The position numbers and the translations under genes were made by a program. The notes under the pieces are model-generated. The model saw nothing but the letters and a program-made list of their open reading frames with translations. It did no database searches and was not told the DNA's origin. Shown piece after piece: positions 56,102 through 63,340 of a DNA stretch of 64,000 nucleotides. The stretch is from IMG/VR virus record IMGVR_UViG_3300020183_000001, positions 18,634 through 82,633 of that record; one strand, written 5' to 3'. The first letter of the stretch is position 1. Every line of letters begins with the position of its first letter. Origin of the DNA: a virus.

Positions 56102-56956
56102 GTGCCCACCACACTCAAAGACTTATGGCTCGCCTTCATGGAAGAGCGTTCCATTTCGTTGTGCCCTACAAGCCTTACGTCAGATTACAGACAAGTAACC
56201 AAATGGTTAACCAGGTGCCCCATTCAAGAGATTGATGAAGCACGCAAGATTATGATCTGGGTACTGGGAGAAAAACCAGTGCTAACTTCCAGACGTGTAG
56301 CCATGTACACAAAAACAATGTACAAATGGGCTGCACAAGAAGATATTGCATATATCCCAAGGAATCCATTGGCAAGTTTTAAAATGCCAAAAGCTCCTCA
56401 AAAAGATGAAGAGATTATTGTTATTCCAAGAAACGAAGTCAGTTTAGTGCTTGCTGCCCTGGAAGCAAAACAAACTTATCGACACGTTAACTGGGCTTGG
56501 TATACAGAGTTTATGCTTCAAACTGCTATGCGCACAGGAGAAGTAAGGGCTTTGCTTTGGGACGACATCAAAGAAAATAAAATCCTTGTACATCAAAACT
56601 GGACATTAACACATGGTCTTAAAGACAGCACTAAAACAAACAAACGACGCTGGGTGCCGCTAAACAGTAAATGTCAAGAACTTTTGAAGCAATTACCACA
56701 AGACAATCGTTTCATCTTTCCCTGGGATAGGCTTGCTTTTCAAAGTTACTTCCGTAAAAAATTACAACCTTTACACACAGGAGAATTAATCAGTCACTTG
56801 TACAGGCCATACGATTGTCGCCACACTGCAATCAGTCGCTGGATTGAGGCGGGCATCCCTGTGCCCCAAGTTGCATCATGGGCTGGTAATACAAGTGAGA
56901 TTATTTTTAAACATTATTGCAACAGCACAAAAGAATACGACATGCCAGAGCTTTAA
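56102..56956 (+). CDS. int: tyrosine recombinase / integrase
   Basis: A 284-residue integrase with all catalytic positions: R144 (AMRTGEVRALLW), K178 or K181 in the beta hairpin (TKTNKRRWVPL), R240-H241 (YDCRHTAIS, with Tyr instead of the first His of HxxR), W260 (VASWAGNT) and the nucleophile Y272 (FKHYCN). The N-terminal 95 residues form a SAM-like core-binding domain. Start is a GTG at 56102. An intact integrase points to a temperate or site-specifically recombining phage. No attachment site could be identified. A degenerate relative lies at 42.3 kb. Confidence 0.88.
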   Translation: MPTTLKDLWLAFMEERSISLCPTSLTSDYRQVTKWLTRCPIQEIDEARKIMIWVLGEKPVLTSRRVAMYTKTMYKWAAQEDIAYIPRNPLASFKMPKAPQKDEEIIVIPRNEVSLVLAALEAKQTYRHVNWAWYTEFMLQTAMRTGEVRALLWDDIKENKILVHQNWTLTHGLKDSTKTNKRRWVPLNSKCQELLKQLPQDNRFIFPWDRLAFQSYFRKKLQPLHTGELISHLYRPYDCRHTAISRWIEAGIPVPQVASWAGNTSEIIFKHYCNSTKEYDMPEL

Positions 56957-57381: not shown

Positions 57382-58494
57382 ATGACAATTAATGTACTGG
57401 ACGCTGTTCGTTATTTCAAAGGGCTGCCGCATCAGGTAGATGCCTTTGTTTGGTTAGATAAAAACTTGACGCCTGAGCAAAAAATTGAGTTTGCACGGTT
57501 GTATCGAGAAGAAAAAAACCCACCCAAAGAAACAGTTACTAACGATTGGGCTGGAATCTTGGGAGCTGCACGTAAAGCTGGAGCTAAATTCCCAGAAGTT
57601 GTTGCTGCTCAATGGGCGCTTGAATCGGGATACGGTAAACACACCTCAGGTAAAAACAATTTTTTTGGCTTGAAAGGAACAGGTAGTGCAGTAGGAACTA
57701 AAGAATTTGTTAATGATCGCTGGATTGAAATTACAGCTAGCTTTATTGATTTCCCCAACATTCAAACCTGTGTTCAGTACTTAGTTGATCGCTGGTACAA
57801 AGACTACAGACATTTCAAAGGTGTCAACAGAGCTAACAACAGAAATGAATGTGCAAATCTTCTTGTAGCAGAACGCTACGCAACTGACCCCGACTATGCA
57901 ACCAAGTTGATTCAAATCATGGATCGAGAGCTTGGTACAGTGCCAAGTGTACCGGGAGTAATTACAGAAAAATCGTTAGTTGTTCCTTACTTTTACCAAC
58001 TAGATAACTCAAGTGGTACTGGTTATCGCGAATGTTTCTCGTCATCTTGTGCGATGATTGCCGCTTATTACGGTTTAGTCGGCTCGGATGACGAATACAA
58101 CAGTGTGCGTAAGAAATTTGGTGATACAACTGATAATACAGTCCAATTAAAAACACTCAGGCACCTGGGACTAACCGCAAAGTTTGTAACCAATGGAAAC
58201 TCTGCTGTTCTTGAAAATGAAATTCGCAATGGTAGACCAGTTGCTGTCGGTTGGCTTCATCACGGAAACATAAGTAGGCCAACAGGGGGTGGACATTGGA
58301 CAGTGGTGCGTGGATTTACACCTACTCATTTCATTCACAACGATCCACAAGGAGAATGTGACATGGTAAACGGTGGTTATGTTTCGACCAGACCGAAAGC
58401 TGGTAATGGGATTAAGTATTCGCGTAAAAATTGGTTACGTCGGTGGGAAGTTGATGGATCTAGTACAGGATGGGCAATTCTTGTAAACAAATGA
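57382..58494 (+). CDS. two-domain lysin: glucosaminidase plus C39-like peptidase
   Basis: A 370-residue protein. Residues 55-190 match the GH73-type glucosaminidase domain (FPEVVAAQWALESGYGKHTS, catalytic Glu in ALESG, then KNNFFGLKG). Residues 200-370 match the C39-like papain fold: VPYFYQLDNSSG, ECFSSSCAMIAAYYG with the nucleophilic Cys, GGGHWTVVRGF with the His and HNDPQGE. It would cut both glycan and peptide bonds. No signal peptide, so a holin is expected; a holin-like gene lies just downstream on the other strand. Confidence 0.85.
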   Translation: MTINVLDAVRYFKGLPHQVDAFVWLDKNLTPEQKIEFARLYREEKNPPKETVTNDWAGILGAARKAGAKFPEVVAAQWALESGYGKHTSGKNNFFGLKGTGSAVGTKEFVNDRWIEITASFIDFPNIQTCVQYLVDRWYKDYRHFKGVNRANNRNECANLLVAERYATDPDYATKLIQIMDRELGTVPSVPGVITEKSLVVPYFYQLDNSSGTGYRECFSSSCAMIAAYYGLVGSDDEYNSVRKKFGDTTDNTVQLKTLRHLGLTAKFVTNGNSAVLENEIRNGRPVAVGWLHHGNISRPTGGGHWTVVRGFTPTHFIHNDPQGECDMVNGGYVSTRPKAGNGIKYSRKNWLRRWEVDGSSTGWAILVNK

Positions 58495-58835: not shown

Positions 58836-59069
58836 TTATTCTACGTACCTTTGTTTATAGAAGGTATAACATTTTAATTCTGGATTACCAACCCACTGGT
58901 ACTGTGCATCTTTACGTGCTAACCACTTACCCCATACTCGATACTGCTTGTCAGGATCAGCACTTTCACAACGGAAGGCAATCATATCCCCTGGTTCCAA
59001 CTCCTCACACCACTGTCGAAGAGTATCAATAACAGTGCGGTAGTGATGGAGAGTAACCTTACCGGTCAA
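58836..59069 (-). CDS. hypothetical protein, 77 aa
   Basis: No ATG is available near the start. I choose the TTG at 59067-59069, which overlaps the upstream stop (LTGKVTLHHYRTVIDTLRQW). The rest (EPGDMIAFRCESADPDKQYR) looks like a real small alpha/beta protein. The frame is open much further upstream, but only as the shadow of the 296-aa gene. No family recognised. Confidence 0.55.
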   Translation of the reverse strand: MTGKVTLHHYRTVIDTLRQWCEELEPGDMIAFRCESADPDKQYRVWGKWLARKDAQYQWVGNPELKCYTFYKQRYVE

Positions 59070-59949
59070 ATTTTGTCCCAAGCGCCTTACGCATGTTCTC
59101 CTCCCACGTTTCTCCAGCCAATCGTTTATCTGGCGCGAACTCTTTCCAGTGGCTAATGAGGCAAGCCATATCATCCCCGCACTGTTTCGTAGGTACGGTA
59201 CCAGCCTCATCTTGAATATCCAGTTGTTCGGTAATCGTTTTGTTACCAGTTTTTTCTTGGGCCTGGGACGCCTGCTCATTTTCTTTTTCTGCTGGAGTTT
59301 TCCAGAAATAATCATCTTGCTCCCCAAGTCGACCCCACTTCGGTACGCATTCAACATCGAAGTAACGAGTTGATACCTTGAAGTCTGGCGTCTTGAGATT
59401 GTGATACGTCAGTGATGGGTCGACCATCCGGCAGCGATTATTAGGATAAGCCCCAATTTGGCCGTTGTCCAAAGCCACAATGTTGTGCGATTTGTGTTCA
59501 TCTGGAAACTCCGAAAAATAAAAGTCGGGTTCATTGCGATGTGGATGGTAATTGTCAATTGTAAACAAGTATGTGCCTTGCATTACACCATGCTCTCTTG
59601 TCAGCACTTCAAAACGCATATTGAAGATCAGATTCTTTTCAATGACCGTCAACCCATGATCAAATCCATTCCAGTACTGAAGATCTGTTAGCGGAAGATC
59701 AGGTGTTGGTTCAACAGGTTTATCTGGACTATCGGAATCCCAGGAAAGAAATGCACTGATTGGCAACTTGTCAAACATTGCGCCGTATTCGGTTAGGTAA
59801 GTTTCGAAGTACAGTGCTCTACCCGTCAAAGACTTACAGGTTACCCAGTAACCAGGAGTGTACTCACCATGCCCCTTTTGAAGATCATACAAATATTCAT
59901 TTCTGACCCACACCTTAACGGGTGGCACATTAGCTACAAGCGTGGTCAT
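59059..59949 (-). CDS. hypothetical protein, 296 aa
   Basis: ATG at 59947-59949 (MTTLVANVPPVKVWVRNEYL). Beta-rich first 200 residues with many aromatics (GEYTPGYWVTCKSLTGRALY), then an acidic linker and a helical end. I recall similar proteins from large cyanophages, of unknown role. No catalytic motif is seen. Confidence 0.65.
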   Translation of the reverse strand: MTTLVANVPPVKVWVRNEYLYDLQKGHGEYTPGYWVTCKSLTGRALYFETYLTEYGAMFDKLPISAFLSWDSDSPDKPVEPTPDLPLTDLQYWNGFDHGLTVIEKNLIFNMRFEVLTREHGVMQGTYLFTIDNYHPHRNEPDFYFSEFPDEHKSHNIVALDNGQIGAYPNNRCRMVDPSLTYHNLKTPDFKVSTRYFDVECVPKWGRLGEQDDYFWKTPAEKENEQASQAQEKTGNKTITEQLDIQDEAGTVPTKQCGDDMACLISHWKEFAPDKRLAGETWEENMRKALGTKFDR

Positions 59950-60929: not shown

Positions 60930-61574
60930 TTACTCTTCGGGATACTCCACAAGAGTTGGGTAAGTAATTGATTTCTTAAATTGCTGCTGTATTGGGGTAT
61001 CAAGTGCTGCACCTTGAGTCTCACGGGACGCAGCATGGGCAAGTTTTGCGTAATCAAACGTTGTAAAGAACGGAGTGATTTTGTCAGGCGGGACGTTGTT
61101 GTTCCATTTTGAGACCATGTGGAGAGGGTTGAGACAGTCAGGGTTTCCACACAAACGCTTGACCGTAAGGGAACCAACGTCTCCCCAGGCGCACTGGTAC
61201 ACCAACTTATGAGTACATACGTTCTCTGATTTCTGCTTGCTCCAGAAGGACCTGTAGGAGGGGAAGCAGAAACGTGACTTGATCTTCTGCTGGTCCCAGC
61301 ACTCGCTGAAGGAGGCGACCTGGAGACGCTTCCAGAGGGTCTCGTACTTGACTTTGTAGTCGACGTGGAAGTAGTTGATGTCGAATCCACAGACGTTGCT
61401 GATGATCTTCTGGACGCAGTGGTAGCACCAGTGATCGTTCACATCCCTGATGACGTGACCATGGGCGCAGGGTGCTCCACGGTAGTACAGATGTTTCCTG
61501 AGATCAAGAGTAGGGAGTGCGTCGATCCCTGGGACGAACCGGAAAAGGGAGTTGTAGGTGGGTGTCGTTTTCAT
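60930..61574 (-). CDS. HNH-like zinc protein, 214 aa
   Basis: ATG at 61572-61574. Residues 35-60 hold a zinc site (CAHGHVIRDVNDHWCYHCV), and residues 150-172 the segment CGNPDCLNPLHMVSKWNNN, which matches the end of HNH/His-Me-finger nucleases (C-x-NP-C-x-NP-H). The expected first His is likely in CTHKLVYQ. Probably an endonuclease. The leader is part of the inverted-repeat region to the right. Confidence 0.65.
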   Translation of the reverse strand: MKTTPTYNSLFRFVPGIDALPTLDLRKHLYYRGAPCAHGHVIRDVNDHWCYHCVQKIISNVCGFDINYFHVDYKVKYETLWKRLQVASFSECWDQQKIKSRFCFPSYRSFWSKQKSENVCTHKLVYQCAWGDVGSLTVKRLCGNPDCLNPLHMVSKWNNNVPPDKITPFFTTFDYAKLAHAASRETQGAALDTPIQQQFKKSITYPTLVEYPEE

Positions 61575-61589: not shown

Positions 61590-61930
61590 GGTCGGACTTT
61601 GGCGGAAAAGTCGGACTTGACCCCCCTTTTTATCTTTATAGCACCGAAATTAAAATTTTACCCTTTTTGTACGTACTAGCAGTATGCCTGTACTACTAAT
61701 AGTACGGACCTACCACTACCAATTAAAATTCCACCCTTTTTGTACGAGACTCCCTCCAAACGCTCCTCAACCACTCTCAGTCTCACCCAGTGGTGCAACA
61801 CTTCTCACCACCGGTGGTGGCACACCAGGACACCTGTACTATCAATCCGTACAAAAAGGATAAAATTTTAATTTCGGTGTACTAAAGATAGATCGACCCC
61901 CAAAGTCCGACTTTTTGCCCAAAGTCCACC
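61590..61930. repeat. 340-bp inverted-repeat element with third internal copy
   Basis: Arms at 61590-61673 and 61848-61930 are inverted copies of about 84 bases with few differences; both hold GUCGGACUU units and the core CCGAAATTAAAATTTTA(C/T)CC followed by TTTTTGTACG. A third, shorter copy in the direct orientation lies at 61721-61746. A perfect 14-base palindrome CACCACCGGTGGTG is at 61806-61819. No gene is seen in 61575-62002. It may be a non-autonomous mobile element, an origin, or a promoter array. Confidence 0.7.
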
Positions 61931-62002
61931 CTGGAACCCCACCTAATCTCATTACCGTCTCACATTCGTCTCAACATGAGACACTCCTTACCCTTTCGTA
62001 CG

Positions 62003-62033
62003 CACAAAAAAAGACCCCGCCGAAGCAGGGTCC
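62003..62033 (-). terminator. intrinsic terminator with UUCG loop
   Basis: On the - strand GACCCUGC-UUCG-GCGGGGUC followed by seven U. It ends the glycosyltransferase transcript and separates it from the inverted-repeat region. Confidence 0.92.
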
Positions 62034-62056
62034 CACCTTCCACGCCGAGATCATCT

Positions 62057-63340
62057 TCACACAGCCACCAGCTCCCTGGGACTTCCTTTACGTTTCTTTG
62101 TTTTCTTACTCTTCTTCTCAAGTGCGACCGGTGAGACAGGACTTGGGGTGTCATCAAACGTCCCTTCCAGTACCTCCTGAAACACTTTGTGGAACTCAGC
62201 AGCGACCGTACCCCACTCAAAGCACACATCCGTAGCCCGCTGGTAGCAGAGATCCCCAACCCTCTTCAACCTTTCACGATCCTGGTACAGACCGTCCAGA
62301 AGCTCTGCCAGGTGGTCATCAGAAGGGCAGGGCATCTCTCGTGCGTAGTTCACGTCCACATCCGTGTGATCGCACCTGATCAGCTCCCCATACCCCTCAA
62401 AGATCTCCTTACAGGACGTATGGTCTGGTACCACCTGAGCCACCCTGCAAGCAGCATGCTCAAAGTTGACAAGTCCCCAACCCTCTCCTTTGCAGGTGTT
62501 GACCCCTACATCACATGCGTTATAGATCTGATTCAGAGTCTCAACTGAGACAGACGGTGGATTAGGTGTTGGTGCAGTCATGATGATCCTTCCGTTTGGA
62601 TCCAGACCCTGCTTACTCATTTCTCTGCCGAACACTTGCATCACATCCCAGCCCTGGTCCTTCATCCCCATATGCAAGTACAACTTTGCCTCTGGTTTAC
62701 CAACGGCAAACTTGGCAAAGCCTGAGATCGTAATATCAATCCTTTTCCTGAACTGATTCCTGTTCCCGTTGAACACAATGAAATCATCAGGCTGAAGATT
62801 GAGTGCTTTACGTGCCTCCTGCTTATCCGTGGGATAAAACTGACCAGACGTAAGTCCATGCGGAATTACACTGATCGGCTTCCGCACACCACCCTTAATA
62901 AATTCGTATGCACCAAATTCTGTATACGAAACAATTGCATCCCAATCGTTAGCAGTATCTGAGATCGCACCAATCCAGTTGTAACTATCCATGGGGCAGT
63001 ACCCCACAAACTTAAATTTCCCAGCCTTGTGCAGATCTTGAATACGCCTGTACTGCTCGTTAACAATCCAGATGTCGTTAATTGTAAAAACAATGTCCGG
63101 GTTTTCGCGCTCCACAATTTCCCTAATCCGATCTTCTCCAAAGGGAGCCTGCTGGAATCGATTGGTTGCTGGATAAATTAAATAGTCTTCTTGCAGTGGA
63201 TGCGGATCTCCATGCCAGTTGCATCCGAGCACCACAATCTCATACTCATCCTTCAGTTTTGCCAATACATTTTCAGTGACACGAGCAAAACCAGTAGTGG
63301 CAATGATGTCACCGATCCAAAGCAATTTGCTTTTTTTCAT
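62057..63340 (-). CDS. glycosyltransferase, GT4-like
   Basis: A 427-residue retaining glycosyltransferase of the GT-B fold. The N-terminal domain starts KKSKLLWIGDIIATTGFARV, whose Gly-rich loop is usual in GT4. The donor domain shows SVIPHGL, then FNGNRNQFRKRIDI (the phosphate-binding NR..KR part) and EGWGLVNFEHAA, the E-x7-E motif. The substrate cannot be named; phage GTs may modify DNA, virion proteins or host surface. It stands alone with its own terminator. ATG at 63338-63340. Confidence 0.85.
   Translation of the reverse strand: MKKSKLLWIGDIIATTGFARVTENVLAKLKDEYEIVVLGCNWHGDPHPLQEDYLIYPATNRFQQAPFGEDRIREIVERENPDIVFTINDIWIVNEQYRRIQDLHKAGKFKFVGYCPMDSYNWIGAISDTANDWDAIVSYTEFGAYEFIKGGVRKPISVIPHGLTSGQFYPTDKQEARKALNLQPDDFIVFNGNRNQFRKRIDITISGFAKFAVGKPEAKLYLHMGMKDQGWDVMQVFGREMSKQGLDPNGRIIMTAPTPNPPSVSVETLNQIYNACDVGVNTCKGEGWGLVNFEHAACRVAQVVPDHTSCKEIFEGYGELIRCDHTDVDVNYAREMPCPSDDHLAELLDGLYQDRERLKRVGDLCYQRATDVCFEWGTVAAEFHKVFQEVLEGTFDDTPSPVSPVALEKKSKKTKKRKGSPRELVAV

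What the first reader, a model, noticed from the sequence alone, without database searches (positions are those of the whole stretch)
61590..61930. Inverted-repeat element with about 84-base arms and a third core copy
The two arms match over their whole length, including double GUCGGACUU units, a GGGGG tract and the AT core TAAAATTTTA followed by CCC/AUCC-TTTTTGTACG. A third core lies between them in direct orientation, and a 14-base GC palindrome sits near the centre. There is no gene inside. Such symmetry fits a non-autonomous mobile element, an origin, or a set of outward promoters that drive the HNH-like gene to the left.
Basis: seen in the sequence. Interest (0 to 1): 0.62.

Follow-up and report, generated by a model that had tools for sequence, protein, structure and literature searches.

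The report
Phage origin-like paired inverted-repeat site
A family of freshwater viruses that infect cyanobacteria keeps one large mirror-image DNA element at the same spot, a few genes after its replication-starting enzyme; its spelling changes from lineage to lineage but both halves stay matched, so it is probably where the virus starts copying its DNA or controls the next gene.

Summary
The inverted repeat is real and far beyond chance: 80-nt arms, 79% identical, with three core copies. It is single-copy and is the strongest inverted repeat in the whole 82.6-kb virus record. It is not a mobile element. It lies at a fixed place in S-EIV1-like cyanophages (P4-type PrimPol/D5 primase-helicase, glycosyltransferase, terminator, element, HNH gene): the primase precedes it in 90 of 90 testable loci, and an inverted repeat above every shuffle occurs in 73 of 79 loci and 21 of 22 sequence clusters. 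The arms have unrelated sequences between clusters but match each other within each one. In one cluster of close relatives, the outer repeats of both arms and the first downstream HNH gene share one allele split, while the DNA between the arms does not.

Best reading: a P4-crr/PICI-like replication origin whose outermost repeats are bound by an HNH-family protein, at least in lineages that carry that gene. The main rival is an autoregulatory operator of the HNH gene. Integrase attP and mobile-element readings are rejected. Origin function is inferred from synteny and architecture. Two hoped-for supports failed: the GC-skew peak was an edge artefact, and the AT-rich stretch is not exceptional.

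The parts
61594..61673 (+). Left (HNH-side) arm of the inverted repeat
   Evidence: 80 nt, 79% identical to the reverse complement of 61848-61927; 99% identical to L007 over 61590-61673
61848..61927 (-). Right (GT-side) arm of the inverted repeat
   Evidence: 92% identical to L007 over 61848-61932
61591..61599 (+). Outer repeat unit GTCGGACTT, HNH side, copy 1
   Evidence: sequence
61610..61618 (+). Outer repeat unit GTCGGACTT, HNH side, copy 2 (19 bp after copy 1)
61903..61911 (-). Outer repeat unit GTCGGACTT, GT side, intact copy
61922..61930 (-). Outer repeat unit, GT side, degenerate copy (intact in L007)
   Evidence: sequence
61648..61673 (+). AT-rich core copy 1
61721..61746 (+). AT-rich core copy 2 (third core, direct orientation)
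   Evidence: 92% identical in L007
61848..61873 (-). AT-rich core copy 3
61632..61638 (-). TAAAGAT motif reading towards the HNH gene; the longer TAAAGAT..GGGG form is unique to the element in the genomes that carry it
61883..61890 (+). Mirror copy TAAAGATA in the GT-side arm, reading towards the GT gene
61806..61819 (.). 14-bp GC palindrome CACCACCGGTGGTG; not conserved in relatives
62011..62034 (-). Intrinsic terminator of the glycosyltransferase gene, separating it from the element
60930..61574 (-). HNH/His-Me-type endonuclease-like gene, 214 aa, directly downstream of the element
   Evidence: phrog_1872 endonuclease E 3e-11; invariant Cys/His/Asn motifs
62057..63340 (-). Glycosyltransferase gene, 427 aa, between the primase (outside the window) and the element
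   Evidence: phrog_2170 E 2e-57; synteny

Best explanation
The element is a single-copy cis-acting site of S-EIV1-like cyanophages, most likely the replication origin of the P4-crr/PICI type. Repeat units in inverted orientation flank the site, 3' of a PrimPol/D5 primase-helicase gene; that initiator would bind the inner repeats and open the DNA there (inferred). In lineages with an extra small HNH-family gene (ORF1) just downstream, the outermost repeats of both arms are the binding sites of that protein (supported by linked alleles in one cluster). In the window's own lineage, which lacks ORF1, binding by its 214-aa HNH protein is a guess by analogy. Shown: reality, uniqueness, fixed position, matched arms, co-segregation. 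Inferred: binding, origin firing, melting.
For: (1) Synteny: the primase lies upstream of the glycosyltransferase on the same strand in 90 of 90 loci with enough flank, followed by the element and an HNH gene. (2) That primase has Prim-Pol, PriCT_2, D5_N and DUF5906 domains, and its C-terminal half matches P4 alpha (E about 1e-19, query residues 410-831). P4 alpha is an origin-recognising primase-helicase (Ziegelin 1993, title cited in PMC8628076). (3) In annotated P4 the crr site lies directly 3' of alpha beyond a terminator and holds type-1 iterons in inverted orientation. PICI origins lie 3' of the initiator, with two iteron sets flanking an AT-rich region (PMC6092414). Marinobacter phage PS6, with a P4-like primase, also has its top inverted repeat just 3' of the primase. 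(4) The element is the strongest inverted repeat of the genome in 9 of 9 near-full records. Inverted repeats beat 50 shuffles in 73 of 79 loci and 21 of 22 clusters. (5) Arms are conserved and the centre is not. (6) In L101-L109 the allele split holds at 6/6 left-repeat sites, 4/4 right-repeat sites and 11/26 ORF1 sites, but 0/7 between the arms, 2/163 upstream and 4/441 downstream.
Against: No replication data were available for any of these phages. The cumulative GC-skew peak at the element was an edge artefact (undone). The least stable 50-mer in the element is unremarkable region for region (44th-93rd percentile), and the centre is not AT-rich. In the one cluster where it can be resolved, the outer repeats co-segregate with ORF1 and not with the primase. 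The broad distance-matrix test is mixed. Of the six other phages with P4-like primases scanned besides P4, only PS6 shows the pattern.
Confidence: 0.45

Rival explanations
1. Autoregulatory control region of the HNH gene(s): the HNH-family protein binds the outer repeats, one copy overlapping its own leader and the other about 200 bp away, and represses its own expression, perhaps by DNA looping. Homing endonucleases such as I-TevI are known autorepressors.
For: Outer repeats of both arms co-segregate with the N-terminal residues of the first HNH gene. The HNH-side outer repeat lies within a few tens of bases of the start codon and a TAAAGAT motif faces the gene. I-TevI autorepression through an operator over its promoter is described in PMC2988022. 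Some ORF1 versions appear to have lost the HNH catalytic residues, as expected for a binding-only role (by inspection).
Against: The GT-side arm mirrors the same parts, including TAAAGAT, yet has no gene to drive. No sigma-70-like promoter was found in the element. The element persists whichever gene follows it (ORF1 present or absent). ORF1-like genes elsewhere in G003 and G011 have no comparable inverted repeat.
Confidence: 0.3
2. Target or landing site of HNH homing endonucleases: the repeats are cleavage or recognition sites, and the locus is a hotspot where such genes insert and co-convert.
For: HNH-family genes sit next to the element in essentially all loci, one or two of them, once on the other side (L095). 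An origin-directed nuclease of another phage, Odn of ICP1, cuts satellite iterons and may drive origin change (PMC8263062).
Against: Each ORF1 allele matches the repeats of its own genome, so a cutter would cut its own genome. No allele-linked sites occur in the 183 bp between the repeats, unlike a single co-conversion tract.
Confidence: 0.1
3. Another phage cis-site, such as a partition, packaging or recombination-initiation site.
For: Paired inverted multi-repeat structure and single copy per genome would also fit such sites.
Against: In S-EIV1 the terminase gene lies tens of kb away. No tyrosine integrase in 15 of 17 records. Partition genes were not examined.
Confidence: 0.08
4. Integrase attP site, or a non-autonomous mobile element.
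For: The window encodes a tyrosine integrase 4.6 kb away, and the arms resemble multi-site attP or terminal inverted repeats.
Against: Only 2 of 17 near-full records carry a PF00589 integrase, and L007, whose arms are 92-99% identical to the window's, does not. Single copy in its own genome, fixed position in all relatives, and the linked HNH gene was found only in two metagenome-derived contigs among the genome records.
Confidence: 0.02

Closest known systems
Satellite phage P4 crr/ori with alpha protein
   Same: Homologous initiator half (primase residues 410-831 vs alpha, E about 1e-19); site 3' of the initiator beyond a terminator; short repeat units as pairs in inverted orientation.
   Different: One glycosyltransferase gene and sometimes AdoMetDC lie between the primase and the element; one long 80-nt inverted repeat rather than two 120-bp direct repeats plus a distant ori; an HNH gene follows; the carrier is an 80-kb cyanophage, not a satellite.
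PICI/SaPI replication origins
   Same: Two repeat sets flanking a central region 3' of a primase/SF3-helicase initiator (PMC6092414).
   Different: No exceptional AT-rich centre; outer repeats track an HNH gene rather than the initiator in the one resolvable case.
I-TevI-type homing endonuclease autorepression in T4
   Same: Nuclease-family protein probably binding next to its own gene (PMC2988022).
   Different: Binding sites lie in both arms of a large inverted repeat, about 200 bp apart; HNH rather than GIY-YIG; no promoter identified.
ICP1 Odn origin-directed nuclease
   Same: Nuclease-family gene associated with origin-like repeats and diversification of those repeats (PMC8263062).
   Different: Odn attacks a satellite's origin; here the HNH gene matches the repeats of its own phage.

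Membership tests
P4/PICI-type replication origin | Located 3' of, and close to, a primase/SF3-helicase initiator gene | tested here: met
   90/90 loci, same strand, with the glycosyltransferase (and sometimes another gene) between; domains; P4 alpha homology
P4/PICI-type replication origin | Two sets of repeats in inverted orientation | tested here: met
P4/PICI-type replication origin | AT-rich, easily melted region between the repeat sets | tested here: inconclusive
   AT-rich tracts lie inside the arms; the least stable 50-mer is at the 44th-93rd percentile region for region, so not exceptional
P4/PICI-type replication origin | Repeats bound by the initiator; repeat and initiator specificity co-vary | tested here: inconclusive
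   Outer repeats co-segregate with ORF1, not primase, in L101-L109; the broad test shows a weak partial correlation with the primase C-terminus; the primase C-terminal region is more variable than the helicase core
P4/PICI-type replication origin | Drives autonomous replication with the initiator | not testable with these tools
   needs an experiment
Tyrosine-integrase attP | Integrase present wherever the site is conserved | tested here: not met
   PF00589 in 2 of 17 records; absent from L007, the closest relative with a full record
MITE or other non-autonomous mobile element | Multiple copies or variable insertion sites, empty sites, target duplications | tested here: not met
   single copy; fixed locus in all relatives
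Homing endonuclease autoregulatory operator | Binding site of the nuclease-family protein overlapping its own promoter or leader | tested here: inconclusive
   co-segregation supports binding by ORF1; no sigma-70-like promoter found; binding not testable here
Structured RNA element | Match to a known RNA family above its gathering score | tested here: not met
   only a sub-threshold RsmY match (19.5 bits vs 57) that covers the terminator, not the element

The most novel reading that the evidence does not exclude
A replicon in which an HNH-family protein and the outer repeats of a replication origin form a co-diversifying, exchangeable specificity pair on top of a P4-type initiator, so that closely related phages carry mutually different origin flanks. 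This would make the HNH protein a working part of initiation, or of origin exclusion between phages, rather than a passenger.
Probability: 0.2. Interest if true: 0.8.

Novelty: new variant of a known kind. Interest (0 to 1): 0.58.

Why it matters
No replication origin is annotated in the parts of the S-EIV1 record read here, and no description of this site turned up in the papers searched. A fixed locus with constant architecture and freely changing sequence gives a concrete place to test initiation. The pair of outer repeats plus small HNH gene offers a natural set of matched alleles in near-identical genomes, so DNA-protein specificity and origin or operator function can be tested by swaps in laboratory plasmids. 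It would also bear on why nuclease genes gather next to origin-like sites, as seen with Odn and satellites.

Tried and rejected
GC skew: the cumulative maximum appeared to fall on the element in 6 of 9 genomes, but this was an edge artefact of starting the sum at the element; after detrending it holds only in G008. The GC3-skew difference between GT and HNH genes (19 of 22 clusters) may be gene-specific and is not used. DNA unwinding region: high percentiles per position vanish when regions are compared. Broad Mantel test of arms vs proteins: mixed, not specific to ORF1. Pattern scan for ATAAAGATAAANAGGGGG in viral contigs: the new hits were unrelated sequences. Structure prediction: ORF1 gave a good model (pLDDT 85.5) but no PDB fold match; the window's HNH model is poor (67.7). 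P4-type primase phages as a general test: PS6 and P4 fit, five others do not. Integrase attP, mobile element and known RNA rejected. The original S-EIV1 paper is not in the library.

Full report
Observation. The window is positions 18634-82633 of an 82,633-base IMG/VR virus record. The nearest isolate found is Synechococcus phage S-EIV1 (KJ410740). At 61594-61673 and 61848-61927 there is an inverted repeat of 80 nt at 79% identity. A 26-nt core occurs three times, twice direct and once inverted, and nowhere else in the window (0.01 expected). The outer ends carry GTCGGACTT units spaced by 19 bp; the second unit at the far right is degenerate. In a scan of the whole record in 450-base windows the element scores 33.5 and the next best place 13.5.

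Surroundings. The element sits between a glycosyltransferase gene with its own terminator (62057-63340 and 62011-62034, both on the minus strand) and an HNH/His-Me endonuclease-like gene (60930-61574, minus; phrog_1872). Read along the minus strand the order is glycosyltransferase, terminator, element, HNH. The primase lies beyond the glycosyltransferase; in this record it falls on the other side of the contig ends, in L132 (position inferred).

Relatives. Loci encoding relatives of the two flanking genes were collected. The order glycosyltransferase, element, HNH holds in 97 loci with 79 distinct intergenic sequences, which fall into 22 clusters by blastn similarity. The PrimPol/D5 primase is upstream on the same strand in 90 of 90 loci with enough flank. 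Inverted repeats exceed the maximum of 50 Markov shuffles in 73 of 79 loci and 21 of 22 clusters. In nine near-full records, S-EIV1 included, the element is the top inverted repeat of the genome. Arm sequences differ strongly between clusters, while both arms of one genome match. Between the window and its closest relative L007 the arms are 99% and 92% identical, the third core 92%, the flank 79% and the centre 62% with 22 gap columns.

Linked alleles. In ten close relatives (L100-L109) the outer repeat exists as three alleles, and both arms always carry the same one. Taking the eight genomes with two alleles (3 vs 5), the allele split is seen at 6 of 6 informative sites in the left outer repeat, 4 of 4 in the right outer repeat and leader, and 11 of 26 in the first downstream gene, ORF1, but at 0 of 7 sites between the arms, 2 of 163 upstream (which includes the glycosyltransferase and primase sequence present) and 4 of 441 downstream (Fisher p about 1e-24, which ignores shared ancestry). 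The right repeat and ORF1 are neighbours and could be linked by position; the left repeat, about 200 bp away across unlinked sites, is the informative part. The amino-acid changes are R5G, V6A, H13Y, K17Q, R23Q and a loop change. ORF1 is a small HNH-like family of mostly 100-146 aa (PF13392 marginal, phrog_99), absent from the window and from S-EIV1, where the larger HNH gene comes first. Several ORF1 versions (L010, L019, L022, L032, L036, L044) appear to lack the catalytic H and N (by inspection). The inference is that ORF1 binds the outer repeats of both arms. This rests on one cluster; a broad matrix test did not single out ORF1.

Mechanism. The primase has Prim-Pol, PriCT_2, D5_N and DUF5906 domains and its C-terminal half matches P4 alpha. 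In P4, crr lies 3' of alpha beyond a terminator and holds type-1 repeats in both orientations. PICI origins lie 3' of the initiator with two iteron sets flanking an AT-rich region (PMC6092414). In Marinobacter phage PS6, which has a P4-like primase, the top inverted repeat also lies directly 3' of the primase. From position and anatomy the most likely role is therefore origin: initiator on the inner repeats, HNH-family protein on the outer ones in lineages that have ORF1. None of the binding or firing steps is shown. An autoregulatory operator is the main rival; I-TevI, a phage homing endonuclease, is a documented autorepressor (PMC2988022).

Negative and withdrawn results. The apparent GC-skew maximum at the element came from starting the running sum there; after detrending it disappears except in G008. 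The helix instability is not exceptional when whole regions are compared. No sigma-70-like promoter was seen. Known RNA families do not match. The integrase is absent from 15 of 17 near-full records, which rules out attP as the general role. Among cellular genome records the HNH gene is found only in two metagenome-derived contigs.

Verdict. Observation confirmed with corrections; interpretation partly supported. A new variant of a known kind (paired inverted-repeat origin or control site), with an unusual linked HNH specificity pair in one lineage.

Noticed in passing
L105, L106, L108 vs L101, L103, L107, L109, inner dyad TGACACTTT-NNNN-AAAGTGTCA: The 4-nt spacer of the inner dyad is CAGT in some and its reverse complement ACTG in others, independent of the outer-repeat allele; this looks like inversion or template switching within the small palindrome.
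   Followed up: no
Intergenic elements of 22 clusters: The hexamer GTCTCA/TGAGAC occurs at least twice in 13 of 22 cluster representatives (shuffle maximum 9), although it is not enriched genome-wide; function unknown.
   Followed up: partly
ORF1 of L010, L019, L022, L032, L036, L044: HNH-like ORF1 appears to have lost the catalytic His/Asn (ADVLRPE or ADVKRPE instead of ADVxH...DNR), suggesting a binding-only protein.
   Followed up: no
window 56102-56956: Tyrosine integrase present in this record and one relative (G002) but in no other near-full relative searched at the family cut-off, so temperate ability may be sporadic in this group.
   Followed up: partly
window 57382-58494: Endolysin-like protein that joins a glucosaminidase domain to a C39-like peptidase domain.
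   Followed up: no
window 59059-59949: Protein matching a PHROG annotated as ferredoxin (phrog_3704, E 5e-100), while the S-EIV1 protein at the corresponding place is labelled PurM; annotations disagree.
   Followed up: no
L171 (Marinobacter phage PS6) 15820-16105: Top inverted repeat of the scanned stretch lies just 3' of a P4-like primase, a possible second case of the same arrangement.
   Followed up: partly
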